From the IMG/VR virus record IMGVR_UViG_3300044691_000274, positions 1-64,000 of that record: 64,000 nt of DNA, one strand, 5' to 3'. The DNA is from a virus. Under the pieces are notes generated by a model, which was not told the origin of the DNA, searched no databases, and was given only the letters and a program-made list of their open reading frames with translations. The position numbers and the translations under genes are program-made. Below, one piece after another: positions 11,540-30,881 of this stretch; positions within the stretch are counted from its first letter, which is position 1; every line of letters begins with the position of its first letter.

Positions 11540-11581
11540 ATCTGAGTATGGTGCGGACTGCCAGGCAACATGGAGGTTCCT

Positions 11582-13504
11582 GTGGCGTCAAAGCATATCT
11601 ACCGCATATCGGGCTCGGTCTGCGACTATAGCGAGGACCCCAAGTCCAAGGAAGCCAAGGCGCTGCTCGGCGGCAAAGGCGCTGGCCTCGTGATGATGGC
11701 CAAGGCCGGCTGCAACGTACCTCCAGCCTTCACGATCACGACCGAGGTGTGCAACGCCTACCGCGAACTGAAGCCCAGCAAGCAGCAAGTGCTCCTGGTC
11801 GACCTCATGCTGGAGGTCATGGATCACATGAAGTGGTTGACCGAGCAGTTCGGCTATACGCCGCTGGTCTCGGTCCGCTCCGGCGCCCCGGTTTCGATGC
11901 CCGGCATGATGGACACCATCCTGAACGTCGGCATGACCGAAGGCAACTTCGACAATTGGGAGAAGCGGCTCGGCAACCGCGCGGCGATCGACAGCTGGCG
12001 CCGGCTGATCCAGATGTTGGGCTCGACCGGATATGGCATCGATATGGCCAAGTTCGACGACCAGCTGGCGGCGACCAAGAAGCTCTACAAGGTCGAGTCC
12101 GACACCGACCTGACCTCCGACATGCTCGACAACGTCCTGCAGCGCTACCGCAAGGTGTTCAAGGAGGCCATGGGGTTTGAGTTCCCCGACAACGACGCGG
12201 AGGTGCAGCTTCACGTTGCCATCAAAGCAGTGTTCGACTCCTGGATGAACCCGCGCGCGATCGAGTATCGCAAGATCAACCACATCGACGAGGGCATGGG
12301 CACAGCAGTCACCGTCCAAGCGATGGTCTTCGGCAACATGGGCGACGACTGCGGGACAGGCGTGCTGTTCTCCCGCGAGCCTTCGACCGGCCAGAAGTTC
12401 ATGATGGGGGAGTTCCTGACCAACGCGCAAGGCGAGGACGTGGTCGCCGGCATACGAACGCCGATGAGCGTCGAGCGGATGCACCCTTCACTCGTCCTCG
12501 AAGACATCCCGCACCAAGATATGTGGCATGACATATACACCACCCTGCTACACCTCTGCGCCCATCTGGAGGACGCTTATATGGACATGGTCGACATCGA
12601 GTTCACCGTCCAGAAGGGCGAGCTGTTCGTCCTCCAGAGCCGCTCGGGGAAGCGCAGCGCGCGGGCAGCGTTCCAGATCGCGACCGACCTGGTGTCAGAG
12701 GGCAAGATCACAAAGGATGCCGCCCTTGGCCGCCTCACGCGCGAGCAGTTCAAGGTAGTGCGGCGCCCGACCATCGACCCAAGCTTCAAGGGGAAGCCCG
12801 ATGACATCGGCCTGCCGGCGTGCCCCGGCGTGGTCAGCGGCATCCCCGTTTTCACATCCGAGGCTGCAGTCAATTGCAAGGAGCCCTGCATCCTGGTCCG
12901 GCATGAGACCGACCCCGACGACATCGCTGGCATGGCCAAGGCGGTTGGCATCCTAACACAGACCGGCGGCGCCACGAGTCACGCAGCGGTGGTCGCGCGC
13001 GCCATGGACAAGGCTTGCGTGGTTGGTTGCACGACCCTCGACATCCCAGACATCAAGGAGCAGGTGAAAAAGCTGACGATCGACGGCTCCACCGGCCGCG
13101 TGTGGTTCGACATCGACGTCCCGGTTATCGACAGCTCGGATGAGGAGTCGGTCAAGAAGGTGACGGCCTGGTGTATGGCGAAGCAGGGAGCAATAGAGGC
13201 GAGCCCAGTCGGACTAGGCGAGGAGCAGCATCTGGTGTTCGCCGCGCACTGGTGGGGCAGCGAGATCGCGGCCGAAGCCATCCTGGCCGACATGCCCAAG
13301 ACGGCGCTGCTCGACGACCGGCACCCACGAGCCTTCGCCAGCGCGAGCGACTTCGTGGTGCAGCATTGCTTCGGCGAGGTGGAGAGCGCTGGGTTCTTCC
13401 CGGTCCTCAAGAAGCTGGCGAAGGAGCACAAAGTGAAGTTCGCGCCAGTCCTTGGCAATGCCTGCCCAGGAGAATATGCGGTCTTTCAAACGCTGACGAG
13501 TTAG
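11582..13504 (+). CDS. PPDK-like phosphotransfer protein lacking the PEP/pyruvate barrel
   Basis: 640 residues from GTG 11582, chosen because GGAGG lies five bases upstream; ATG 11570 would swallow that site. Residues 1-380 match the pyruvate phosphate dikinase ATP-grasp domain: LGGKGAGLVMMAKAG, VRSGAPVSMPGMMDT, VFGNMGDDCGTGVLFSREPSTG, DIEFTVQKGELFVLQSR. Residues 390-510 are the swivelling phosphohistidine domain with GGATSHAAVVAR, His467 being the phosphoryl carrier. The normal C-terminal barrel (about 350 residues) that binds PEP and pyruvate is absent, replaced by about 130 unrecognised residues. It can be expected to transfer phosphate from ATP to His467; the final acceptor is unknown. 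Either a degenerate dikinase or a repurposed kinase, as rifampin phosphotransferase is. Confidence 0.9.
   Translation: MASKHIYRISGSVCDYSEDPKSKEAKALLGGKGAGLVMMAKAGCNVPPAFTITTEVCNAYRELKPSKQQVLLVDLMLEVMDHMKWLTEQFGYTPLVSVRSGAPVSMPGMMDTILNVGMTEGNFDNWEKRLGNRAAIDSWRRLIQMLGSTGYGIDMAKFDDQLAATKKLYKVESDTDLTSDMLDNVLQRYRKVFKEAMGFEFPDNDAEVQLHVAIKAVFDSWMNPRAIEYRKINHIDEGMGTAVTVQAMVFGNMGDDCGTGVLFSREPSTGQKFMMGEFLTNAQGEDVVAGIRTPMSVERMHPSLVLEDIPHQDMWHDIYTTLLHLCAHLEDAYMDMVDIEFTVQKGELFVLQSRSGKRSARAAFQIATDLVSEGKITKDAALGRLTREQFKVVRRPTIDPSFKGKPDDIGLPACPGVVSGIPVFTSEAAVNCKEPCILVRHETDPDDIAGMAKAVGILTQTGGATSHAAVVARAMDKACVVGCTTLDIPDIKEQVKKLTIDGSTGRVWFDIDVPVIDSSDEESVKKVTAWCMAKQGAIEASPVGLGEEQHLVFAAHWWGSEIAAEAILADMPKTALLDDRHPRAFASASDFVVQHCFGEVESAGFFPVLKKLAKEHKVKFAPVLGNACPGEYAVFQTLTS
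12865..12878. repeat. TGCA-N6-TGCA dyad, spacer gtcaat
   Basis: Exact dyad inside the PPDK-like gene; the spacer fits RNYRNY. Confidence 0.5.
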
Positions 13505-19113: not shown

Positions 19114-21513
19114 ATGATTACTTTCTATACGTCAGCCAAGGCGGAGTCGGCAGAGGCCATCTTCGGCAAGTCGCTGAAGTCGTTCCGCCCGAACATCCCC
19201 ACCCATCGGTTCGTCCCGCGCAAGGAGGGCGTCGCGCTGCCCAAGCCTGAGCCGGGCGAGGTGGTCATCGTCTGCGGCCCGTGGTGCTTCCTGGACGTGC
19301 AATTGGCCGGCCTGGCGCCGAAGAACCGGTCCCTCAATTCAATGCGGGAGCGTGCAATTGCCTGCAATGGCGGCTGGTATCTGCTGACGTTCGACCCGAG
19401 CGTGCTCCAGACCGAGCCGGAGAAGCGGGAGATCATCGACTGGGACGTCCGCCTCGCCCACCGCCTGATGACCACCGGGGACCTTAAGCCCAAGGTCGGG
19501 GATTACGTTTGGGTGGCCTCCTATGCGCAGTTAATTGCAGACATCGAAGCCGAGTTCGAGAAGACCGGCAAGCCGGTGAAAGTCAGCTTCGACACCGAGA
19601 CCATGGGGCTTTACCCCTGGTATCCGAAAAAGGACTTCGTCTGCCTTCAGGTCACGCATCGCAAGGGCCGCTCCGAGCTGATCTACCTTGGCCAGTCCCG
19701 CGCGCACCCGATCGAGCTTGAGGCCGGCATCCTCGACCAAATCAAGTGGCTGCTGAACAGCCCCAAGGTCCGCCTGCGCATGGCGAACGGCAAATACGAC
19801 CTGATCTGGATCAAGGAGAAGTGGAACATCGACTGCACGAACTTCACGTTCGACACGCTGCTGGTCGGCTCACTGCTCGACGAGAACCGGAGCGGCTCCC
19901 TCAACATCCACGCCAAGCTGTTCACCGATTTCGGGGGCTACGACGACGACTTCAACGCCAAGTTCGACAAAGGCAAGATGGACGAGGTCCCGGTCGAGGA
20001 CATGCTCGTCTACGCGGGCGGGGACACCGACGCCTGCTACCAGGTGGCCGACATCATGCAGGCCGAGCTAGACGAGGACCCAGCGCTCAAACGGTTCTAC
20101 GTGACCATCCTGCACCCGGCGGCGCGCGCGTTCGAGAAGATCGAGCGGCGCGGAGTCCTGATCGACCAGGAGAAGTTCGCCATCCTCCGGCAGGACCTGC
20201 AGAAGGCCATCAAGGACAGCCAGAACGCCCAGATGGACCTGCTGCCGCCGAAGATGCGGATCAAGTGGATGGACCGCATCGACGACCAGCTGGCGCAGGG
20301 CAAGAACCCGCTGCTGCCCTCGATCGTCAACGAATACTTTTTCACCCCGCACGGCCTGAACCTCAAGCCGCAGCTCTACACGCCGAAGGACAAGAAGGCA
20401 TCGCTTGCGAAGGCCCACCTCCGCCTGGTTGGAGAAGGGCACCCGGTGGCCGGCAAGCTGATCGCGGAGATGACGATAGGCGACTCTGCGTCCAAGACGC
20501 TGTCGACCTTCGTGGACGGCTTCCTCAAGCACCTGCGTCCGGATGGCCGCTTCCACCCGAGCTACATGCTGTTCCACGGTGGCTTCGGCGACGGCGACGA
20601 GGACGACGCGGGCACCACCACCGGCCGGCTGAGCGCCAAGGAGCCCGCCTTCCAGATCATCCCCAAGAAGACCAAGTGGGCCAAGCGTATCCGCGAGTGT
20701 TACATCGCGCCTCCCGGCAAAGTCATCGTCTCGATCGACTATAGCCAAGGTGAACTGCGCGTCGTCGCGTGCTTCGCGCCAGAGAAGACGATGATCCAAG
20801 CCTACAAAGACAACCTTGATCTGCACGCGGTGACGGGCGCGCGGCTCGCGGGGGTGGACTTCAAGGAGTTCATCACCTGGAAAGACCACAGCGACAAAGA
20901 ATTGGCGGACCTTTTCGACAAGCACAGAGGGAACGCCAAGCCTGCGAACTTTGGGCTGCTCTATGGTCAGATGGCCCCAGGCTTCATGGCTTACGCTTAT
21001 GCCAACTACAATATCAAGCTTACACTGGCCCAAGCCGAAGAGATGCGGGACGCTTTCTTCAGCCTATACCCAGGGTTGCTTGACTTCCACAAACGCCAGA
21101 TCAACATCACTGGCCTGCACGGAGAAGTGCGCAGCCCGCTCGGCCGCATCCGCCACCTCCCCAACATCTGGAGCAAAATCGGCGCCATCCGAATGAAGGC
21201 GGAGCGCCAGGGGATCAACGCCCCGATCCAATCGTGCCTGGCCGACATGATGGAATGGGCGATCGCGCTCATAAACGACGCGTTCCCGAACGAAGAGGTC
21301 CAGGTGGTCGGCAACATCCACGACGCGCTCATCGCCTATATCGACGAGGACAAGGTCGAGGCCATCCTGCCGCAGGTCATGGAGATCATGTCCACCCTGC
21401 CGCTCCACAAGATGGATTGGCACCCGCAGGTGCAGTTCACGGTCGACGGCGAGTACGGCTCCAACCTGGCCAACATGAAGAAGTTCAAGCCAGCCCTAAA
21501 ACTTGCCGCCTGA
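19114..21513 (+). CDS. Family A DNA polymerase with 3'-5' exonuclease domain
   Basis: 799 residues. The exonuclease domain has DTE (Asp160, Glu162) and GGDTDACYQ near residue 298. The polymerase domain shows TTGRLSAKEPAFQIIP, motif A SIDYSQGELR with Asp542, and motif B K609PANFGLLYG. Motif C reads IHDALIAY: catalytic Asp737 is kept but the following Glu is Ala738. There is no 5'-3' nuclease domain. It should be the phage replicative polymerase. Exact and near-exact dyads lie at 19353 and 19526 inside the gene, and another right after its stop. Confidence 0.95.
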   Translation: MITFYTSAKAESAEAIFGKSLKSFRPNIPTHRFVPRKEGVALPKPEPGEVVIVCGPWCFLDVQLAGLAPKNRSLNSMRERAIACNGGWYLLTFDPSVLQTEPEKREIIDWDVRLAHRLMTTGDLKPKVGDYVWVASYAQLIADIEAEFEKTGKPVKVSFDTETMGLYPWYPKKDFVCLQVTHRKGRSELIYLGQSRAHPIELEAGILDQIKWLLNSPKVRLRMANGKYDLIWIKEKWNIDCTNFTFDTLLVGSLLDENRSGSLNIHAKLFTDFGGYDDDFNAKFDKGKMDEVPVEDMLVYAGGDTDACYQVADIMQAELDEDPALKRFYVTILHPAARAFEKIERRGVLIDQEKFAILRQDLQKAIKDSQNAQMDLLPPKMRIKWMDRIDDQLAQGKNPLLPSIVNEYFFTPHGLNLKPQLYTPKDKKASLAKAHLRLVGEGHPVAGKLIAEMTIGDSASKTLSTFVDGFLKHLRPDGRFHPSYMLFHGGFGDGDEDDAGTTTGRLSAKEPAFQIIPKKTKWAKRIRECYIAPPGKVIVSIDYSQGELRVVACFAPEKTMIQAYKDNLDLHAVTGARLAGVDFKEFITWKDHSDKELADLFDKHRGNAKPANFGLLYGQMAPGFMAYAYANYNIKLTLAQAEEMRDAFFSLYPGLLDFHKRQINITGLHGEVRSPLGRIRHLPNIWSKIGAIRMKAERQGINAPIQSCLADMMEWAIALINDAFPNEEVQVVGNIHDALIAYIDEDKVEAILPQVMEIMSTLPLHKMDWHPQVQFTVDGEYGSNLANMKKFKPALKLAA
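19353..19366. repeat. TGCA-N6-TGCA dyad, spacer attgcc
   Basis: Exact dyad inside the polymerase gene; the spacer fits RNYRNY. A one-mismatch copy (CGCA left arm) follows at 19526-19539. Confidence 0.5.
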
Positions 21514-21816: not shown

Positions 21817-21870
21817 CTGACTCCCGGCTTGCCGGACCAGCAGTGCAGCGTCCGTAGGCGACGCAGTATG

Positions 21871-21884
21871 TGCAATTGATTGCA
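21871..21884. repeat. TGCA-N6-TGCA dyad, spacer attgat
   Basis: Exact dyad (GTGCAATTGATTGCAA) 28 bases upstream of the portal ATG. Confidence 0.8.
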
Positions 21885-21911
21885 AACGCTGCTGAGCCGG
21901 TGGAGGTTCGC

Positions 21912-23909
21912 ATGGTCGATCAAGTCGTCAAGGACGGCGAGAAGCCTGTTCAGCAAGTGCTGCGCTTGGTTGTGCCCAACGCTGGCATCCGCACGGACTT
22001 GGCCGGCCTACGCAAGGACCTCGGACCGCATGGTGGCAACACCAAAGGCAAGGACGGCACGGACGCCATCCAGGACAACGTCTTCGAGCCGGAAGACGAA
22101 TATCAGCAGCTCTACGTCGGCGCGACGCGCGACCAGGGCGTGATCCAGCCCCCGTACAATCCCCGCCAGCTCGACTATCTGAGCCAGCAGAACAACACGC
22201 TCGGCCCCTGCATCGAGGCGATGGTCACGAACGTCGACGGGACCGGCTACGACTTCGTCTCGGAAGACACCGACGAGGACGACGCCCAGGACGACCCGAA
22301 GGTCGACGAGCTAGAAGAGTTCTTCGCTCAGCCGTGGCCCGACATGTCCTTCCTGGAGATGCGCAAAATCCTGCGGCGCGACGAGGAGCGCACCGGCAAC
22401 GCCTATATCGAAGTCCTGCGGAACGCCCAAGACGAAGTCGTCATGTTCCGGCACATCGACGCGAAGATGATGCGGATGCTGCGCCTCGACGACGCCATCC
22501 CGGTAGACAAGACCGTGAACCGACAGGGCAAAGACATCACGCTCAAAGTCATGTCCCGAGAGCGCCGTTATTGCCAGCTCGTCAACGGCGTAACCCTGAT
22601 GTATTTCAAGGAGTTCGGCGCTTGCCGGGACCTCCATAAGAAGACGGCTGTGTGGTCGCCCCAAGGCCAGCGCCTGCCGGCGGCGCAGCGCGCGACCGAG
22701 GTCATTCACTTCACGCTGATCCCCGACGCGCACACGCCTTACGGCATCCCGCGCTGGATCATGCAGACCCCGTCCATCCTCGGCTCGCGCCAGGCGGAAG
22801 AGTTCAACCTTGAGTTTTTCAAGAGCGGCGGCATCCCGCCGGTGATGGTCATCCTGCAGGGGGGCACGCTCCAGGCCAAGACCCGCCAGGCGATCGAGAA
22901 CATGAACGCGGGCGACGCCTCGAAGAAGAACCGGATGCAGGTGCTCGAAGTCGAGCCCACGGCAGGCAGCCTGGACAAGGCAGGCGTAGCCAAGGTGACG
23001 GTCGAGCGCTTCGGGTCGGATCGCCAGAAGGACTCGATGTTCGAGGAATACGACGCCAAGTGCGAGGAGCGCGTCCGCCGCGCCTTCCGCCTGCCGCCGA
23101 TGTTCCTGGGGCAGTCCAAGGATTACAATTTCGCGACAGCCTTCGCCTCGTACACGGTGGCCGAGGCCCAGGTGTTCAAGCCGGAGCGCGAGGCGTTCGA
23201 CATGGTCATCTCGATGAAGCTCCTGCCCGCCATGGGCTACGAGGGCTATAAGATGCGGTCGAAGAAGTTGGTCATCGAAGACGCGACCCTGAAGCTGCAA
23301 GGCATGGAGGTGATCATGGCCATGGGCGACCAGGTGGAGCCAGGCGACGTGGTCAAGGCGGTCAACGACATCACCGGCACCACGCTCAAGGTCTCCGACA
23401 ACGCCCCCGACCTCGCCGCCAAGCAACAGCAGCAGGTCCAGCAGACGATGATGCAGCACCAGATCGGCATGGCGCAAGCGAACGCTGGCGCGGGCGCCGC
23501 GAACAAGGGAGCGATCAAGCCGATCAACCCCCAGCCCAAGTCTCCGACAGGTCTCCCCGTACCAGGCAGTATTAGGGCCAACGGCGGCAACCCAGGCGCC
23601 ATCAAGCCGAAGCAGTTGCCAGGCGTCATGGGAGGCGCCGGAACGCCTGTGGCCGCGCCTACGCGCAAGACCGACATGACGATCCCGGAGTTCGCCATGC
23701 ACGCCGTCAAGGCTCTGCGCAAGCGCGACCTTATCGAACTGGCTTGGGTCCTCCCGATCATCGGCGGCCTCGACGAGGACAGCCGGGCTCAGTTCGACGC
23801 GGCGACCGCCGACTTGGCGTTCGTCGACACCACCTACGATCCGGCGGGTCTCGCAGCCCTCGCCAGCGCGACGATGGACGTCATGGCCGGCTGCGGCCAC
23901 AGCCACTGA
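21912..23909 (+). CDS. Portal protein
   Basis: 665 residues from ATG 21912, which follows GGAGG. The order of segments fits PBSX/SPP1-type portals: LDYLSQQNNTLGPCIEAM, LRRDEERTGNAYIEVLRN, HTPYGIPRWI, GSRQAEEFNLEFFKSGGIPPVMVI, then FRLPPMFLGQSKDYNFATA. The portal dodecamer forms the DNA gate at one capsid vertex and docks the terminase. The C-terminal 200 residues are Gln/Gly/Pro-rich and probably flexible. It heads the head operon, downstream of two dyads. Confidence 0.92.
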   Translation: MVDQVVKDGEKPVQQVLRLVVPNAGIRTDLAGLRKDLGPHGGNTKGKDGTDAIQDNVFEPEDEYQQLYVGATRDQGVIQPPYNPRQLDYLSQQNNTLGPCIEAMVTNVDGTGYDFVSEDTDEDDAQDDPKVDELEEFFAQPWPDMSFLEMRKILRRDEERTGNAYIEVLRNAQDEVVMFRHIDAKMMRMLRLDDAIPVDKTVNRQGKDITLKVMSRERRYCQLVNGVTLMYFKEFGACRDLHKKTAVWSPQGQRLPAAQRATEVIHFTLIPDAHTPYGIPRWIMQTPSILGSRQAEEFNLEFFKSGGIPPVMVILQGGTLQAKTRQAIENMNAGDASKKNRMQVLEVEPTAGSLDKAGVAKVTVERFGSDRQKDSMFEEYDAKCEERVRRAFRLPPMFLGQSKDYNFATAFASYTVAEAQVFKPEREAFDMVISMKLLPAMGYEGYKMRSKKLVIEDATLKLQGMEVIMAMGDQVEPGDVVKAVNDITGTTLKVSDNAPDLAAKQQQQVQQTMMQHQIGMAQANAGAGAANKGAIKPINPQPKSPTGLPVPGSIRANGGNPGAIKPKQLPGVMGGAGTPVAAPTRKTDMTIPEFAMHAVKALRKRDLIELAWVLPIIGGLDEDSRAQFDAATADLAFVDTTYDPAGLAALASATMDVMAGCGHSH

Positions 23910-23919
23910 GGAGACGACA

Positions 23920-24375
23920 ATGTTGAATTTCGACAAGGTCAAGAAGGAAGAGATGCTGCGCGAGTCGCATGTCGACCCTCTGGTCGAGGGCCTGATCAAG
24001 GCCGAGAACGAGCGGCATCCGACGGGTCAGTTCAAGCTGGGTCCGGCCGGATCGCAGAAGAAGCTCGGCGGCATGGCGTTCGACGCCGCGCGCGAGCATA
24101 TCGACAATTGCGAGAAGGCGGCCCAGGCCGGCAAGGCCGACGAGGCGCAGTTCCACGCGAACATGTCGCAGCAATATGCGGGCATCGGCGTCCAGAACCA
24201 CATGATGGGCGGCTACCTCCAGAACCCCCAGCAGATGACTGGGTTCGGCGACGGAAGCAGAGCCGGAGCACCTCAGCCGGGAGCAGGAGCGGCGCCAGGC
24301 GGCGGGAAGCCGGCGCAGCGTCAGAAGTCCGACATCGACAAGGCCGTCGAAGCCATCAAGGCCCTCGGCGCGTAA
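23920..24375 (+). CDS. Small head-region protein
   Basis: 151 residues with a helical middle (FDAAREHIDNCEKAAQAGKADEAQFHANMSQQYAG) and a Gly/Ala/Pro-rich tail. Near the N-terminus HPTGQFKLG resembles the R-x-G-F/R-G short motif seen in the gene at 24880. It lies between portal and head morphogenesis genes, so it is probably a minor head or assembly protein; no family recognised. Confidence 0.7.
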   Translation: MLNFDKVKKEEMLRESHVDPLVEGLIKAENERHPTGQFKLGPAGSQKKLGGMAFDAAREHIDNCEKAAQAGKADEAQFHANMSQQYAGIGVQNHMMGGYLQNPQQMTGFGDGSRAGAPQPGAGAAPGGGKPAQRQKSDIDKAVEAIKALGA

Positions 24376-24379
24376 TCCG

Positions 24380-24393
24380 TGCAATCACTTGCA
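24380..24393. repeat. TGCA-N6-TGCA dyad, spacer atcact
   Basis: Exact dyad (GTGCAATCACTTGCAC) 18 bases upstream of the ATG at 24412, immediately before its ribosome binding site. Confidence 0.82.
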
Positions 24394-24411
24394 CTTCAAT
24401 AGGAGAGCACC

Positions 24412-24819
24412 ATGACGCATTTTGCTAGGGTTCCACCGGCGCGCGCGGCGCGCATGGTCAAGGACTCGAACTTCTTCTCGGGCGACCAAGGCGGGGCGGA
24501 CGCAGGCGCGGCCGGGCAGTCGATGCCAGCATACCCCCAGCCGTCGCCGGCCAGCCACATGAACGAGATCGCCGATCGCCACGATCGCGAGTCCGACCTG
24601 CACAGCAACATCTCGAACCAGACCGCGATGGCCAATATGCCCAAGCGATCGAACGAGCATCAGCAGATCGCTGACCAGCACAAGCTTGCGGCGGGCCACT
24701 ACCGCGCGGCGGCCAACTCCCTCGGAAACGGGGCCGACAAGGCAGCGGCGGCACCCCATCTCAAGCAAGCGCGCGCGTGCGCTGGACAAGCTGGCGAATT
24801 GAGCAAATGTGGGAACTGA
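24412..24819 (+). CDS. Hypothetical head-region protein (MTHF leader)
   Basis: 135 residues (MTHFARVPPARAARMVKDSN). His/Asn-rich helical centre (HMNEIADRHDRESDLHSNIS) and a second helical stretch (IADQHKLAAGHYRAAANSLG), resembling the protein at 23920 in its repeated helical bundle pattern. It is preceded and followed by dyads and starts with the same MTHF leader as the next gene. No family recognised. Confidence 0.65.
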   Translation: MTHFARVPPARAARMVKDSNFFSGDQGGADAGAAGQSMPAYPQPSPASHMNEIADRHDRESDLHSNISNQTAMANMPKRSNEHQQIADQHKLAAGHYRAAANSLGNGADKAAAAPHLKQARACAGQAGELSKCGN

Positions 24820-24853
24820 AAGTAACGGGACGCAGGCGCCTGCATGGCTAAAG

Positions 24854-24867
24854 TGCAAGTGCTTGCA
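24854..24867. repeat. TGCA-N6-TGCA dyad, spacer agtgct
   Basis: Exact dyad 12 bases upstream of ATG 24880. If translation began at ATG 24844 the dyad would be read as VQVLA. Confidence 0.75.
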
Positions 24868-24879
24868 GCGGAGACGACC

Positions 24880-25104
24880 ATGACCCACTTCACACGGATG
24901 GAAAAGGGCGATCAGCCCCGCGATGCCGACGGCAAGTTCGGCTCAGGCGGCGGGGAAGGACCCCGTGCTGAGGACAAGTTCAATAAAGGCCAGAAGGTCA
25001 AGACCCGCTACGGCGAGACAAAAACCGTCGCGAGCGTCAACCACCCGATGGTTACGACGACCGACGGCAGCGATTACCACCACACGAAGGTTTTCGCGAG
25101 CTAA
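24880..25104 (+). CDS. Small head-region protein with RDADGKFGSGGG motif
   Basis: 74 residues from ATG 24880 (MTHFTRMEKGDQPRDADGKF); ATG 24844 is an alternative that would place the dyad inside the coding region. The RD-x-x-GKF-GGG motif is common at N-termini of phage head proteins. The second half (NKGQKVKTRYGETKTVASVN) looks like a small beta-barrel. The leader matches that of the preceding gene, suggesting duplication. Confidence 0.65.
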   Translation: MTHFTRMEKGDQPRDADGKFGSGGGEGPRAEDKFNKGQKVKTRYGETKTVASVNHPMVTTTDGSDYHHTKVFAS

Positions 25105-25106
25105 CG

Positions 25107-27035
25107 GTGAAGATCGAACCCAAAGCCTTCCTCGCCATTGAGCGGTCAATGGCCGCAGCCATGCACGCCGAGTGGGACCGTCTGGCGTCCTCGGTGTTCG
25201 TGAAGCTGCGTGAGAAGCTTGAGGCCAAGGATTGGGCCGGCGCGGAGACGCTCGCCAATGAGCTGACGCTCAAAGGTGTGGTTCAATCCGTCCGGCCCAA
25301 GCTCGAAGAACTGGCGACCTCCGCCTTGCTCTTCGGCGCCCACCGGGTGACGGGGGACGTCTCCACGACCAAGTTCACCAAGGGCAAGGTCATCCCCAAG
25401 GAGCTGCACACGGCGATCGACCAGCTGGAGCACGCGATCGAGCACGACGCCTCCGATTTCGTCCGCAAGCAGCTGCACGGCAAGATCGCAGCCATGAAGG
25501 TGGCGGACCCCCGCGCGCACATGCAGAAGGACTCGATCTACGACGAGCCCTCCAAGCGACCGGACCGGCAGACCGACGAGGAATATCCTCCGGAGCCTGA
25601 CGAGGACGGCGAGACGGCGCGCGCGCAGGAGAAGCTCTACGGCCAGGCAGGCTACGCGGCGAAGGACGACCTGTCGACCGAACAGCTGGCAGAGACCGGG
25701 GGCCTCCTAGAGCCCGAGCAGTCCGAAAAATCCCGCAAACTTCGGACAAAGAAGTCAGTCGTTGAGACGCTCTACGTCTACCGGCCGCTGAAGAACGCCG
25801 AGCAAGTGATCGCTTGGGCGAAGGGCCAGGGGTTCGAGACCTGCCTGCAGCCGGACGACATGCACGTCACGATTTGCTACAGCAAGACCCCCGTGGACTG
25901 GACCCTCTTCGATCCGGACCCGAGCGTCCTAATCGTCTCGCCCGCGTTCGACCGCGACGTCCTGCAGTTCGGCAAGGCGGCGGTGCTGACGTTTCACTCG
26001 GACGCGCTGTTGGCCCGCCACGAGCACTTCGAGGCGGTCGGCGGTGCCAGCTACGATTTCGACGAATATAAGCCGCACGTCACGCTCAGCTGGAAAGACT
26101 GGGTCCCGGTGGACTCCACCTATCACGGCCCGCTCGTGTTCGGCCCGGAGGTGTTCGAGAAGATCGAGGACGACTGGGCGGCCGACATCGTCGAGAAGGC
26201 CGAGATCGACCTGATCTCCCAGCTCAACGACGCGGTCCAGAACGGCGGCAAGGTGGCGATCGACCTCGGCGCCAGCATGACCACCTCCCGCCTGGTCTCG
26301 CTCGGCTTCCTCTCGCAAGCGCAGGCGTCCGGCCACTCGAAGTATCGGGTGGACGAGGTGCTCGACGACAAGACCTGCCCGGTCTGCATGCAGATGAACG
26401 GCATGGAGTTCGACGTCGATCAGCAATATGGCCGCACGCTCCAGGCCCTGGGCACCAGCGATCCGGCCGAGCTAGCCTCTATCGCGCCTTGGCCCGAACT
26501 GGCCGACGTGCTGGGTGTGGACGCGGATGAGCTGCAGGGCAACGGCTACGGCGCGCCGCCATACCATCCGTTCTGCCGGGGCATGATGGAACTCGTCGAG
26601 GACGGCGACGTGCAGTTGACTGCGCCAGGCGTAGGAGGTTTCGGTGGGGACGAAGACGACTTGGGTGGAGCGGCCGTCGACATCGGGGCCGGGGCAGCCG
26701 GGCATGGAGGGAACGAGTGGAACGATGACGATGTCCAACAATTGGGTTGGGATCGTTTCGAAGTCACCGATCCCCACGTATTCGCAGACATTGATGCAGC
26801 GTTTGAGGAAGGGGACTACGACCAAGCGCAAGAGATGATCGAGGCGTGGAAGTCCAAGGCGGTGGCGAAGGAAGACATCACCGAAGGCCCCAACGTCCCG
26901 AAGAAAAAGAGGCGCGCGCAGACGCCGGCCGGAGACGCCCAGGACTACGACGACATCCAACAAGACAGCTCGAACGTCTCCTTTGACTCCGGTGTTTCCA
27001 ACGACATGAACGCTCCGCTGGACCGCGACGCCTAA
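25107..27035 (+). CDS. Head morphogenesis protein with inserted 2H phosphoesterase domain
   Basis: 642 residues from GTG 25107. The flanking parts fit Mu gpF-like head morphogenesis proteins: helical N-terminus, then LISQLNDAVQNGG, DDKTCPVCMQMNG near 420-435 and PPYHPFCRGMMELV near 480. Between about residues 210 and 355 lies a different domain: LYVYRPLKNAEQVIAWAK, then DMHVTICYS (His253, Thr255) and YKPHVTLSW (His324, Thr326). Two H-x-T motifs are the hallmark of 2H phosphoesterases (LigT, CPDases, anti-CBASS Acb1). It may cleave 2'-5' or cyclic nucleotide bonds and, if packaged, be delivered with the virion. The C-terminal 110 residues are acidic and low-complexity. Confidence 0.85.
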   Translation: MKIEPKAFLAIERSMAAAMHAEWDRLASSVFVKLREKLEAKDWAGAETLANELTLKGVVQSVRPKLEELATSALLFGAHRVTGDVSTTKFTKGKVIPKELHTAIDQLEHAIEHDASDFVRKQLHGKIAAMKVADPRAHMQKDSIYDEPSKRPDRQTDEEYPPEPDEDGETARAQEKLYGQAGYAAKDDLSTEQLAETGGLLEPEQSEKSRKLRTKKSVVETLYVYRPLKNAEQVIAWAKGQGFETCLQPDDMHVTICYSKTPVDWTLFDPDPSVLIVSPAFDRDVLQFGKAAVLTFHSDALLARHEHFEAVGGASYDFDEYKPHVTLSWKDWVPVDSTYHGPLVFGPEVFEKIEDDWAADIVEKAEIDLISQLNDAVQNGGKVAIDLGASMTTSRLVSLGFLSQAQASGHSKYRVDEVLDDKTCPVCMQMNGMEFDVDQQYGRTLQALGTSDPAELASIAPWPELADVLGVDADELQGNGYGAPPYHPFCRGMMELVEDGDVQLTAPGVGGFGGDEDDLGGAAVDIGAGAAGHGGNEWNDDDVQQLGWDRFEVTDPHVFADIDAAFEEGDYDQAQEMIEAWKSKAVAKEDITEGPNVPKKKRRAQTPAGDAQDYDDIQQDSSNVSFDSGVSNDMNAPLDRDA

Positions 27036-27166: not shown

Positions 27167-27811
27167 GTGACTGTGACTGCCCAATTGGTGAAAACCCGGA
27201 AGGCGATCACGGTCCAGGACGCGGTCCAGATCAAGAAGCTCGATCGTGAGGAGCAAGTCGTATTCGGCGAAGTGTACGCGCCAGGTTTTCCGGACTCGCA
27301 GGGCGACTTCATGTCACCCGACGAAATCAAGAAGATGGCCTACAACTTCATGCGTAAGGGGGCGTTGTCGAACATCGACACGAACCACACGCAGACGCCA
27401 AACGGCTCCTACGTGGTCGAAAGCTTCATCGCACGTGACGATGACCCTGTCTTTATTCCGGGTAGCTGGGTCTTGGGCGTCAAAGTCCCTGACCAGGGCG
27501 TCTGGCAGATGGTGAAGTCTGGAGAGCTGAACGGCTTTTCGCTTGATGGGTTCGGGGTCCGCACGGACTCGGTGTTCTCAGTCGAAATGCCCGAGCTGCT
27601 CAAAGGAGAGACCACCGAGGTCTCGGACCATAGCCACGTGTTCACAGTCAAGTTCGACCGCGCGGGCAACTTCCTGGGTGGGACGACTGATCCGGGGCGA
27701 GACGGACACGTGCATAAGATTGCACGAGGCACGGCGACTGAGCGAGCGGGCGTTCCCGCGCACAGCCACCGGTTCTCGTTCGTAGAGGGTGTTCTCAATG
27801 CCTCGTCTTGA
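27167..27811 (+). CDS. XkdF-like prohead protease
   Basis: 214 residues from GTG 27167. The first 130 residues match the XkdF-type putative serine protease family: QVVFGEVYAPGFPDSQGDFMS, the IDTNHTQ segment and SWVLGVKVPDQGVWQMVKSGELNGFSLDG. Its usual role is maturation cleavage of scaffold and capsid during head assembly. The His-rich tail (DHSHVF, GHVHKI, AHSHRF) may bind metal. It overlaps the following scaffold-like gene by 14 bases. The catalytic residues are inferred from family, not proven here. Confidence 0.85.
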   Translation: MTVTAQLVKTRKAITVQDAVQIKKLDREEQVVFGEVYAPGFPDSQGDFMSPDEIKKMAYNFMRKGALSNIDTNHTQTPNGSYVVESFIARDDDPVFIPGSWVLGVKVPDQGVWQMVKSGELNGFSLDGFGVRTDSVFSVEMPELLKGETTEVSDHSHVFTVKFDRAGNFLGGTTDPGRDGHVHKIARGTATERAGVPAHSHRFSFVEGVLNASS

Positions 27812-29417
27812 CCTGAAGGCCACAGAGCTGACGAACACGGACGTCGACTTCGTTGCTTTCGTTAAGCACGGAGCCAACCGAATTCCGTTCCGCATCACAA
27901 AGTCAGAGGACGAACCCATGGACCTTTACTCTCTCGGCCGGCGCTTCCTGAACAAGGCGGACCTGGTCCCCACCGTCGTCGCGATCATCAGCAAGTCTGA
28001 AGTCGCCCCCGAGGTCCTGAAGGTGCTCCTCCCCGGCGCGCTGAAGAAGTCCGAGCAGGACGGCATGTTCACGTTCGTCGCGGAAGGCGCCAAGAGCGAA
28101 GGCGGAGTCCTCGTCAAGCTGGACGAGAGCCTGGCCGTCATCATCACCAATTCCAACCTCCGCAAGGCGTTCCCCGCTTCCGAGTCGGTCAACGGCTTCG
28201 GCGCCGCGCGCGCTGAGCATGACTTCCTCGTGGCGGACGCCATCGCGAAGGCAGAGACCCCGGCGCTCGCCCGCGACGCTATCGCGAAGGCAGGCGAAGC
28301 TTTTGCGGCTCACGTCGAGCTGCTCGCGGCGGTCCTCCCGGCCAACATCTTCAAGGCTGAGCAGCTCCTCAAGATCGGCTCTGGCAACGCAGAAGGCGCG
28401 GCCGGCACCAACCAGGAGACCGGCGACGGCCTCGGCGACAAGGCCAACGGCAAGGCCAACGGCAAGGCCAAGAAGTCCTCGGACGGCAAGACCCTCTCCG
28501 ATGAGGGCGATCCCGGCGCGAAGGACCCGCTGATGCCCGGCGCAGACGCAGGCAAAGGCCCACAGCGCGCCGCCAAGGCCGATGCAGGCAAGAATGGCAC
28601 CGGAGCTGGCGTCGAACTCGGCGCGGGCACGGGGACCAACCCCAACGCCACGGACGACGACGAGGACGAAGAGATCAATGCGGCCCCCGGCGAGCGCGTG
28701 TCGGGAGACAATTCCGGCCTCCCCGCCAAGGTGAACGCCAAGAAGGCCGCGATCGCAGCTGCCATGCTTGCCCTCACCAAGGCGACCGAGATGGAAGACG
28801 ACGACTCGACCAACGGCGCCCAGAGCGACGTTCCGGCCAAGGTCAAGGCGCCGACCACCAAGGATGCCAACCTCGCTGAGGTCCGCACGGTCGGAGCCAG
28901 CGGCGAAGGCGCGCGCCAGGCTGCGGCCGACAGCAAGCTCGACCATCGAGACACCGTCACGGACGAAGTTGGGGCCGATGGCCTCAGCAAGCCCAAGGGC
29001 GCGACCCTAAGCACTGAAGGCGTCCCGGCCAAGCTTTTGGCCCCGACGACCAAGAACGACGGCGACGCCGACATCGGCAAGGACGGGAAGGGCAAAACTC
29101 TCCCCGAAGCCCAATCCGGTGCCGGCGCGCAGGAGAAGGACGTTCAGACCCTCAAGTCTGAGACGGCCATCATGGTCGCAATCCAGGCGCTCGCTAAGAG
29201 CGTCCAGGAGAGCGTTGCCGGCGTGACCAAGTCTGTCTCTGATCTGTCCGTGAGGGTGGATGAGGTGACCGGCATGGCGAAGAAGACCGACGCGGCCCTC
29301 AACGGGACCGTGTTCGCGGAGAGCGGAGACGATCGTCAAACTTGGGCGAAGACCACCAAGTCCGACGGAGCCCCGCCGCTTCTCGACACGGGCTATGGCC
29401 GTCGCAGGACCGCGTAA
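27798..29417 (+). CDS. Scaffold-like protein
   Basis: 539 residues from ATG 27798. Residues 1-190 look structured (VDFVAFVKHGANRIPFRI, DLYSLGRRFLNKADLVPTVV); residues 200-430 are low-complexity Gly/Ala/Lys/Asp (KANGKANGKAKKSSDGKTLS, PAKVKAPTTK repeats); the end is a coiled coil (VQESVAGVTKSVSDLSVRVDEV). Placement between protease and major capsid protein fits an internal scaffolding protein. The N-terminus resembles a second XkdF-associated domain; this is a weak impression. Confidence 0.7.
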   Translation: MPRLDLKATELTNTDVDFVAFVKHGANRIPFRITKSEDEPMDLYSLGRRFLNKADLVPTVVAIISKSEVAPEVLKVLLPGALKKSEQDGMFTFVAEGAKSEGGVLVKLDESLAVIITNSNLRKAFPASESVNGFGAARAEHDFLVADAIAKAETPALARDAIAKAGEAFAAHVELLAAVLPANIFKAEQLLKIGSGNAEGAAGTNQETGDGLGDKANGKANGKAKKSSDGKTLSDEGDPGAKDPLMPGADAGKGPQRAAKADAGKNGTGAGVELGAGTGTNPNATDDDEDEEINAAPGERVSGDNSGLPAKVNAKKAAIAAAMLALTKATEMEDDDSTNGAQSDVPAKVKAPTTKDANLAEVRTVGASGEGARQAAADSKLDHRDTVTDEVGADGLSKPKGATLSTEGVPAKLLAPTTKNDGDADIGKDGKGKTLPEAQSGAGAQEKDVQTLKSETAIMVAIQALAKSVQESVAGVTKSVSDLSVRVDEVTGMAKKTDAALNGTVFAESGDDRQTWAKTTKSDGAPPLLDTGYGRRRTA

Positions 29418-29445
29418 AAAGCGGATTTTTTAACCAGGAACCGAG

Positions 29446-29459
29446 TGCAGTTGTCTGCA
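29446..29459. repeat. TGCA-N6-TGCA dyad, spacer gttgtc
   Basis: Exact dyad (GTGCAGTTGTCTGCAC) between scaffold-like and capsid genes, only 14 bases before the capsid ATG. The distance is too short for a leadered promoter with the dyad at -35. Confidence 0.82.
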
Positions 29460-29473
29460 CGATAGGAGATGAT

Positions 29474-30466
29474 ATGTCTAGCAACGGAAGCCTGCTCCGC
29501 AAGGCCGACCTCGCCATCGCGGACCTAGCCACCAACGGTGGTGAACTCAACCCCGAACAGGGCGCCGCGTTCATTCGCGTGCTCATCAAGCAGCCGACGC
29601 TGATCCGCGTTTGCCGCGTGGTCGAGATGATTTCGCCCGAGCGCAAGATCAACAAGATCGGCTTCGGAGCGCGTATCCTTCGCGCCGCGACGTCGGGCGT
29701 TGCTCTGGCGGCCAACGACGGCACGCTCGGCACCCGCGCCAAGCCCACGACCAGCCAAATCCAGCTCAACACGAAAGAGCAGATCGCTGAAGTGCGCATC
29801 CCGTACGACGTGATGGAAGACAACATCGAGCGTGCGACGACCGCCGGCAACGAACTGCCGAACACCGGTCCGGCCGGCCTCCGCCAGACGATCATCGACC
29901 TGATCGCCGAGCGCGCTGCGTTGGACATGGAAGAGCTGGGCCTCCTGTCGAACCTGGGCTACACCAACGGCGCCGACGCGGGCGACCAGGCGTTCCTCAG
30001 CCAGTTCGCTGGTTGGCTGAACAACGGCTTGACCAACGGCAACGTCTTCGACGCGGCCGGGCAGTCGATCAACAAGTCGATTTTCAAGCAGGGCTTGAAG
30101 ACGATGCCGTCGCAGTATCAGCGCAACAAGGCCGCTCTCAACCACTTCGTCTCCGTGAACAACGAGACCGAGTATCGGGACACCTTGGCTGATCGCGGCA
30201 CGGCGCTCGGCGACCAGATGACCCAGGGCACGACTTCGACGTTTGCCTTCGGTTCGCCGGTCGTTCCGGTCGCTCTCATGCCCGAGAGCAACGGCCTCTA
30301 CACGGACCCTGCCAACCTGATCTTCGGCATCCAGCGCCAGGTCTCGATGGAGTTCGACAAGGACATCACTGCCCGCGTCTACATCATCGTCCTGACCGCC
30401 CGCGTTGCCTTCCAGATCGAGGAAGCTACGGCGCTCGTCGCGTACGAGAACATTCAGACGATCTAA
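29474..30466 (+). CDS. Major capsid protein (HK97 fold)
   Basis: 330 residues from ATG 29474 with AGGAG upstream. It begins with a helical arm (LLRKADLAIADLATNGGELN) and contains EQIAEVRIPYDVMEDNIE, LIAERAALDMEELGLLSN, then a C-terminal IFGIQRQVSMEFDKDITARVYIIVLTARVAFQIEE, the strand-rich P-domain style ending seen in HK97-fold capsids of this portal class. Position after protease and scaffold, and own terminator downstream, support it. Confidence 0.88.
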   Translation: MSSNGSLLRKADLAIADLATNGGELNPEQGAAFIRVLIKQPTLIRVCRVVEMISPERKINKIGFGARILRAATSGVALAANDGTLGTRAKPTTSQIQLNTKEQIAEVRIPYDVMEDNIERATTAGNELPNTGPAGLRQTIIDLIAERAALDMEELGLLSNLGYTNGADAGDQAFLSQFAGWLNNGLTNGNVFDAAGQSINKSIFKQGLKTMPSQYQRNKAALNHFVSVNNETEYRDTLADRGTALGDQMTQGTTSTFAFGSPVVPVALMPESNGLYTDPANLIFGIQRQVSMEFDKDITARVYIIVLTARVAFQIEEATALVAYENIQTI

Positions 30467-30536: not shown

Positions 30537-30881
30537 GTGAGCGCGCGACGAAAGCCTGAACCAGGAACGGTTCGCGGCCTGTGCGTCAACCGCTGCGGGC
30601 GCCTGCAGATGAGTCGTGGCGACGGCAGGTTTCGGGCAGAGTGCCCAGCCTGTCATTCGCGTGCGTACGGGATCGAGCGTAATCCGGACACCAGGCACAC
30701 GGCGGGCTACCGGAAGCATAAGAAATTGATCTGCGCGGGATGCGGGTTCGAGCCGGTGCATAGGTGCCAGCTGGACGTACACCACAAAGACGGGAACCAC
30801 GAAAACGACGATCCGGGCAATCTGGAGACATTGTGCGCGAATTGTCATCGCCTGGTCAGTTGGAAGCAGAAGTGCAGTTGA
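30537..30881 (+). CDS. HNH endonuclease with CxxC zinc pairs
   Basis: 114 residues from GTG 30537. Two zinc-ribbon-like pairs (CPACHS, CAGCGF) precede an HNH core DVHHKDGNHENDDPGNLETLCANCHR. This type differs from the EndoVII-like genes at 8007, 13511 and 49624. It is inserted between the capsid gene and the connector genes, with dyads at both ends and a 16-bp direct repeat flanking it, consistent with a mobile homing-type gene. Confidence 0.88.
   Translation: MSARRKPEPGTVRGLCVNRCGRLQMSRGDGRFRAECPACHSRAYGIERNPDTRHTAGYRKHKKLICAGCGFEPVHRCQLDVHHKDGNHENDDPGNLETLCANCHRLVSWKQKCS

What the first reader, a model, noticed from the sequence alone, without database searches (positions are those of the whole stretch)
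25107..27035. 2H phosphoesterase domain inserted in a head morphogenesis protein
Two H-x-T motifs (His253/Thr255, His324/Thr326), 71 residues apart, lie between the N-terminal part and the CxxC part of a Mu gpF-like protein. 2H enzymes include the anti-CBASS protein Acb1, which destroys cyclic nucleotide signals, and RNA 2'-5' phosphodiesterases. As part of the head the domain would be present from the moment of DNA injection, an attractive way to deliver a counter-defence enzyme.
Basis: partly seen in the sequence, partly recalled or inferred. Interest (0 to 1): 0.8.

Follow-up and report, generated by a model that had tools for sequence, protein, structure and literature searches.

The report
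Anti-CBASS enzyme inside phage head protein
A phage head protein carries, inserted in its middle, an intact-looking copy of Acb1, an enzyme that destroys the alarm molecules of the bacterial CBASS defence, which suggests, but does not prove, that the virus brings the enzyme with it when it injects its DNA.

Summary
ORF 25107-27035 (642 aa) lies between portal and prohead protease and holds an Acb1 domain at residues 221-359 (Pfam PF23474, E=1.9e-33). AlphaFold gives a confident 2H fold whose best PDB match is Acb1 of phage FBB1. The four catalytic residues are present (H253/T255, H324/T326), as are Y223, F318, E351 and W357; only the equivalent of T4 W74 is missing. A search blind to Acb1, using the MuF-like C-terminal half, found 38 relatives. 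Twelve carry Acb1, all with intact HxT/HxT. L093 is the same protein with the site empty. Other relatives carry Zeta toxin plus Nudix at this site, or ADP-ribosyltransferase, Zeta or ParB-like domains at the C-terminus; L109 has both Acb1 and ADP-ribosyltransferase. The protein therefore looks like a cargo carrier. The idea of head packaging, injection and counter-signalling was already published for 2H-MuF and 2H-portal fusions (Iyer 2017 PMC5512222; Iyer 2022 PMC9503650). It is a new member of a known kind. Enzyme identity is strongly supported; virion presence, injection and activity are untested.

The parts
25107..27035 (+). MuF/SPP1-gp7-like minor head protein with inserted Acb1 domain, 642 aa, GTG start 2 nt after the stop of the upstream ORF
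25107..25505 (+). N-terminal helical domain (residues 1-133), shared with Acb1-less relatives
25506..25751 (+). Flexible acidic linker (residues 134-215), mostly low confidence in the model; its 3' part is shared with the Acb1-less L093
25767..26183 (+). Acb1 2H phosphoesterase domain (residues 221-359)
25863..25871 (+). First catalytic motif H253-V-T255 (T4 Acb1 H44/T46)
26076..26084 (+). Second catalytic motif H324-V-T326 (T4 Acb1 H113/T115)
26211..26606 (+). MuF core (residues 369-500) with CPVC at 424-427 and HPFC at 487-490
26607..27032 (+). C-terminal tail (residues 501-642), mostly predicted disordered
19114..21513 (+). DNA polymerase A upstream of the head genes (same order in the Vibrio and IMG/VR relatives)
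21870..23909 (+). Portal protein; has no Acb1 domain
27167..27811 (+). Prohead protease
27789..29417 (+). Probable scaffold, by position and homology in relatives
29342..30466 (+). Major capsid protein (homology begins near residue 42, so the true start is probably downstream)

Best explanation
The gene encodes a low-copy minor head protein of the MuF/SPP1-gp7 type that serves as a carrier for effector enzymes. Here the cargo is a catalytically competent Acb1, placed on flexible linkers between the N-terminal helices and the MuF core so that the head part still folds. Proposed steps: (1) the protein is built into the prohead at the portal vertex [inferred]; (2) it leaves with the DNA on infection [inferred]; (3) Acb1 hydrolyses cyclic di- and trinucleotide CBASS signals that contain adenosine, through the HxT/HxT pair [inferred from intact residues and fold], before the phage's own genes are expressed; (4) late synthesis in the same cell adds more enzyme [inferred].
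For: Acb1 identity. Catalytic tetrad and most ligand residues intact by T4 numbering. Purifying selection on the domain: dN/dS 0.067 between L015 and L018, against 0.031 and 0.039 in the flanking domains. Insertion shown by Acb1-less homologues in the same gene position, J26, and by L093, which keeps both flanks and lacks the domain. The search blind to Acb1 found other effectors on the same scaffold: Zeta toxin and Nudix at the same junction in L100; ADP-ribosyltransferase in L105, L113, L117, L118, L123; Zeta in L120; Acb1 plus ADP-ribosyltransferase in L109 and ParB-like nuclease in Stenotrophomonas phages DLP_5 and Summit. Three related isolate genomes (RcZahn, RHph_Y1_11, RHph_TM16) have no detectable copy of this head protein, so it is not needed for assembly in all of them. 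Published precedent: 80alpha gp44, a minor capsid protein carried in the virion and needed after infection; MuF toxins proposed to be injected.
Against: No proteomics, ejection or enzyme data. At the copy number reported for 80alpha gp44 (about two), injected enzyme could be too scarce to clear an established signal. Acb1 also sits on portals (most hits), which are not expected to enter the cell, so injection cannot explain every head fusion. The experimentally tested T4-type Acb1 is on a long branch away from the fused clade, and T4 W74 and E141 are not conserved across that clade, so substrate range may differ. MuF matches are below curated cut-offs. No host is known, so no CBASS can be pointed to.
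Confidence: 0.6

Rival explanations
1. Late-expression coupling: fusion to a late structural gene makes Acb1 whenever head proteins are made, when CBASS is thought to be triggered by late products. The enzyme works in the producing cell; presence in virions is incidental.
For: Acb1 is fused to several different late head proteins, including portals and prohead proteases that would not be injected. Stand-alone T4 Acb1 works by expression in the infected cell.
Against: Does not explain why the MuF carrier also holds ADP-ribosyltransferase, Zeta, Nudix and ParB-like domains, a set reported for injected head proteins. A separate late gene would do the same without burdening a head protein.
Confidence: 0.22
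2. The domain acts on other substrates: 2'-5' oligoadenylates or RNA ends, as a repair or RNase 2H enzyme (the first alternative in Iyer 2017).
For: The 2H superfamily includes LigT and Usb1; LigT is the next structural match. T4 E141, the adenosine contact, varies in the fused clade, and W74 is replaced.
Against: Sequence and fold are closest to Acb1 by a wide margin; the window itself keeps the equivalents of Y12, F107, E141 and W147; Hobbs 2022 found all nine tested homologues cleaved 3'3'-cGAMP and cAAA.
Confidence: 0.12
3. The 2H domain has become a structural or binding element of the head and is no longer an enzyme.
For: It is embedded in a structural protein, and the 2H fold could in principle bind nucleotides without turnover (inference).
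Against: Catalytic His are invariant in all Acb1-bearing members found by a search blind to the motif; the domain is dispensable to the protein (L093, J26).
Confidence: 0.06

Closest known systems
2H phosphoesterase-MuF and 2H-portal fusions (Iyer et al. 2017, PMC5512222; Iyer et al. 2022, PMC9503650)
   Same: Same domain pair and same proposed role: packaged in the head, injected, degrading nucleotide immune signals.
   Different: Those papers do not name Acb1 (2022 text: 0 occurrences; 2017 predates it). Here the domain is Acb1, inserted between the N-terminal helices and the MuF core, with an empty-site relative.
Acb1 (T4 gp57B, FBB1 Acb1; Hobbs et al. 2022, PMC9117128)
   Same: 2H fold, HxT/HxT tetrad, Y12, F107, E141 and W147 equivalents.
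   Different: T4 Acb1 is a 152-aa stand-alone protein; W74 is not conserved; only about 30-36% identity to the T4-like member Acj61.
MuF polymorphic toxins (Jamet et al. 2017, PMC5576092)
   Same: MuF head protein with exchangeable enzymatic domains, proposed to be injected.
   Different: Reported toxin-bearing MuF proteins are of temperate phages, with variable C-terminal domains; here Acb1 is internal, a counter-defence enzyme rather than a toxin, and no relative was found in bacterial genomes.
Pam3-type portal with C-terminal Acb1 domain (PDB 8hds sequence; PF06381 portals)
   Same: Acb1 attached to a head structural protein.
   Different: Different carrier (portal) and C-terminal position; annotated only as portal.
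80alpha gp44 ejection protein (PMC7290940)
   Same: Minor capsid protein encoded between portal and scaffold, carried in the virion and acting after infection.
   Different: Binds genome ends; carries no such enzyme domain as far as the paper says; homology to the window protein was not tested here.

Membership tests
Acb1 (PF23474) | Profile match over the curated cut-off across the whole domain | tested here: met
   115.7 bits against 27; profile 2-143 of 144
Acb1 (PF23474) | 2H fold closest to solved Acb1 | tested here: met
   pLDDT 92.3; Foldseek best 7t26, E=1.2e-8, TM 0.76 by target length; LigT far weaker
Acb1 (PF23474) | HxT/HxT catalytic tetrad (T4 H44, T46, H113, T115) | tested here: met
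   H253, T255, H324, T326
Acb1 (PF23474) | Ligand-contact residues Y12, W74, F107, E141, W147 | tested here: inconclusive
   Y223, F318, E351 and W357 present; W74 aligns to L286, and W is rare or absent at this position throughout the fused clade
Acb1 (PF23474) | Cleavage of cyclic di- and trinucleotides, not cA4 | not testable with these tools
   needs an assay
MuF / SPP1 gp7-like minor head protein | Profile match over curated cut-off | tested here: not met
   PF04233 19.9 of 29.6 bits; TIGR01641 27.1 of 39.65 bits. The claim is therefore 'MuF-like', supported by PHROG head families and gene order
MuF / SPP1 gp7-like minor head protein | Gene between portal and protease/scaffold/capsid genes | tested here: met
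MuF / SPP1 gp7-like minor head protein | Present in the virion | not testable with these tools
   needs virion mass spectrometry
2H-MuF head fusions with exchangeable effectors (Iyer 2017; Jamet 2017) | Effector domain attached to a MuF-type carrier, exchanged between relatives | tested here: met
   Acb1, Zeta+Nudix, ADP-ribosyltransferase, Zeta, ParB-like, or none, on homologous carriers

The most novel reading that the evidence does not exclude
The virion carries a cargo protein with a swap-in site, and in this phage group the cargo is a ready-made anti-CBASS enzyme that disarms cyclic-nucleotide signalling before any phage gene is expressed. This would be a pre-emptive, virion-borne form of signal-degrading counter-defence.
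Probability: 0.45. Interest if true: 0.75.

Novelty: new member of a known kind. Interest (0 to 1): 0.52.

Why it matters
Known Acb1 is studied as a protein made after infection. If the enzyme arrives with the DNA, phages can counter CBASS from the first moment. The MuF-Acb1 family, with members having Acb1, other effectors or an empty site, makes a published but untested prediction testable with simple biochemistry and virion proteomics.

Tried and rejected
A single-sequence scan of IMG/VR with the window protein found nothing; alignments were needed. The genome-contig scan found no relative, so no prophage and no host could be named. HxT spacing alone was rejected as evidence (2.6% of shuffles). 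E348, which first looked like T4 E141 because it is nearly invariant, was rejected once the T4 sequence was fetched: E141 aligns to E351. The figure of 88 of 88 for the first HxT is partly circular, because the Acb1 search used that motif as its seed; the members recovered through the C-terminal domain are the fair sample. dN/dS for distant pairs was dropped because synonymous sites are near saturation or the ratio is unstable. No PADLOC match. No paper naming Acb1 together with MuF or portal fusions was found in the open library, which does not cover most subscription journals. Searching the paper library for BCSR5 showed nothing on its phosphodiesterase in titles or abstracts.

Full report
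OBSERVATION. The ORF at 25107-27035 is real and as described. The two HxT motifs are at 253-255 and 324-326 and are the only H-x-[ST] motifs in the protein. Motif spacing alone would not be convincing (2.6% of shuffles). The profile evidence is: PF23474 Acb1, E=1.9e-33, residues 221-359, 115.7 bits against a cut-off of 27; PHROG 755, 1.3e-20; PDB chains 8hds (Pam3 portal C-terminus) 3e-16 and 7t26 (Acb1) 2e-11 from the single sequence, and 1e-44 and 3e-19 with a profile.

FOLD AND ACTIVE SITE. AlphaFold2 with a 41-sequence alignment gives pLDDT 92 for the domain. Foldseek against the PDB puts FBB1 Acb1 first (7t26, 1.2e-8; 7t27), then the Burkholderia phage BCSR5 protein deposited as Acb1, and E. 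coli LigT only at about 1e-3. Against the T4 sequence: Y12=Y223, H44=H253, T46=T255, F107=F318, H113=H324, T115=T326, E141=E351, W147=W357; W74 aligns to L286 and is not conserved. Hobbs et al. 2022 (PMC9117128) assign catalysis to H44/T46/H113/T115, base stacking to Y12, W74, F107 and W147, and an adenosine contact to E141, and report that nine further homologues cleave 3'3'-cGAMP and cAAA. Across the fused clade E141 is E, A, Q or K, so specificity may vary. In the tree the T4-like solo proteins form a separate long branch; function in the fused clade is therefore inferred, not shown.

THE CARRIER. The rest of the protein is MuF/SPP1-gp7-like: TIGR01641 4e-6 and PF04233 1e-3, both below cut-off, several head-morphogenesis PHROGs, and position in the order DNA polymerase, portal, this gene, protease, scaffold, capsid. 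The full-length model (pLDDT 74) shows helices 6-133, a mostly disordered stretch up to residue 215, the compact Acb1 domain, a long helix 369-407, the MuF core to about 496, and a largely disordered tail.

AN INSERTED CASSETTE. Vibrio phage J26 has the same gene in the same place, 360 aa: window 42-127 matches J26 41-122 and window 363-512 matches J26 134-288, so Acb1 is an insert. A search of IMG/VR with only the C-terminal domain, blind to Acb1, gave 40 loci, 38 of them with long matches. Twelve of these carry Acb1 and 26 do not (some loci are duplicates or truncated). In one Acb1-bearing member, L092, the N-terminal helices were not recognised. All Acb1-bearing members keep HxT/HxT. L093, 55% identical to the window protein, keeps both flanking linkers and lacks just the domain. 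Seven records with the fusion have exactly one Acb1 each; nine records without it have none elsewhere, although these may be fragments. The window's own 103.5-kb record has one. The gpF-type Acb1 domains need two label changes on the tree (bootstrap range 1-4), consistent with one or a few acquisitions. Between L015 and L018 dN/dS is 0.067 in Acb1, close to the flanking domains.

OTHER CARGO ON THE SAME CARRIER. Pfam finds Zeta toxin and Nudix inserted at the same junction in L100; C-terminal Zeta in L120; C-terminal ADP-ribosyltransferase in L105, L113, L117, L118 and L123; Acb1 plus C-terminal ADP-ribosyltransferase in L109; and ParB-like nuclease in the Stenotrophomonas phages DLP_5 and Summit. 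By eye L107 ends in a GNAT-like and L121 in an HExxH metallopeptidase-like domain (sequences). The related isolates RcZahn, RHph_Y1_11 and RHph_TM16 have portal followed directly by protease and no detectable copy of the carrier. This pattern fits a carrier of effectors better than an essential assembly part.

OTHER ACB1 HEAD FUSIONS. Most IMG/VR Acb1 domains found are at the C-terminus of proteins of about 600 aa. The examples scanned were PF06381 portals (L034, L045, L062); others are PF04860 portal (L021), DUF2213 (L086), Peptidase_S78_2 (L032) and Peptidase_S78 (L038) proteins. The sample is biased by the search pattern, so proportions mean little.

PRIOR ART. Iyer et al. 2017 describe 2H domains fused to MuF or portal domains and suggest that they degrade nucleotides of nucleotide-activated defence; Iyer et al. 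2022 say that such fusions suggest packaging in heads, injection and countering of SMODS, cyclic mononucleotide and CRISPR signalling. Jamet et al. 2017 describe MuF polymorphic toxins and propose injection. For 80alpha gp44, a minor capsid protein of about two copies per virion acts after infection. New here, as far as the open library shows: the domain is Acb1 itself with an intact active site, sits inside the carrier, and has an empty-site relative and alternative cargo in the same family.

MECHANISM AND DOUBT. Shown by computation: Acb1 identity, intact catalytic residues, insertion, exchange of cargo. Inferred: packaging, injection, enzyme activity, CBASS as target. The main rival is coupling to late expression, since Acb1 also sits on portals, which should not be injected. 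Few injected copies may not suffice against an active CBASS. Virion proteomics, an enzyme assay and an in-trans virion test would decide.

Noticed in passing
L100:857-4846 (IMGVR_UViG_3300047444_000378): Same head protein family with a roughly 920-aa insert at the Acb1 site that holds Nudix and Zeta-toxin domains and a further region matching PHROG 3170 (unknown function).
   Followed up: partly
L109:3062-4975 (IMGVR_UViG_2785511464_000001): One head protein with both internal Acb1 and C-terminal ADP-ribosyltransferase.
   Followed up: partly
L118:2093-6751 and L119:3548-8206, 1553 aa: Head protein with a roughly 1270-aa C-terminal extension ending in an ADP-ribosyltransferase; most of the extension has no Pfam match.
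   Followed up: no
L133, L134, L135 (RcZahn, RHph_Y1_11, RHph_TM16): Related roughly 100-kb isolate phages have no detectable copy of this head protein; portal is followed directly by protease.
   Followed up: partly
L008:2272-4137 (Pam3) and PDB 8hds: The Pam3 portal sequence ends in an Acb1 domain but is named only portal; it was not among the 50 listed fold matches, so that part may not be modelled in the structure.
   Followed up: partly
L028:627-6386: 1920-aa phage protein combining an FAD-dependent oxidoreductase region with an Acb1 domain.
   Followed up: no
window 11570-13504: Phage gene with PPDK_N and PEP-utilizers domains (PEP synthase-like), unusual cargo.
   Followed up: no
window 30537-30881: HNH endonuclease directly downstream of the major capsid gene.
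   Followed up: no
window 23920-25104: Three small ORFs between portal and head protein with no PHROG match; the first two have homologues in L017 and L020 only.
   Followed up: no
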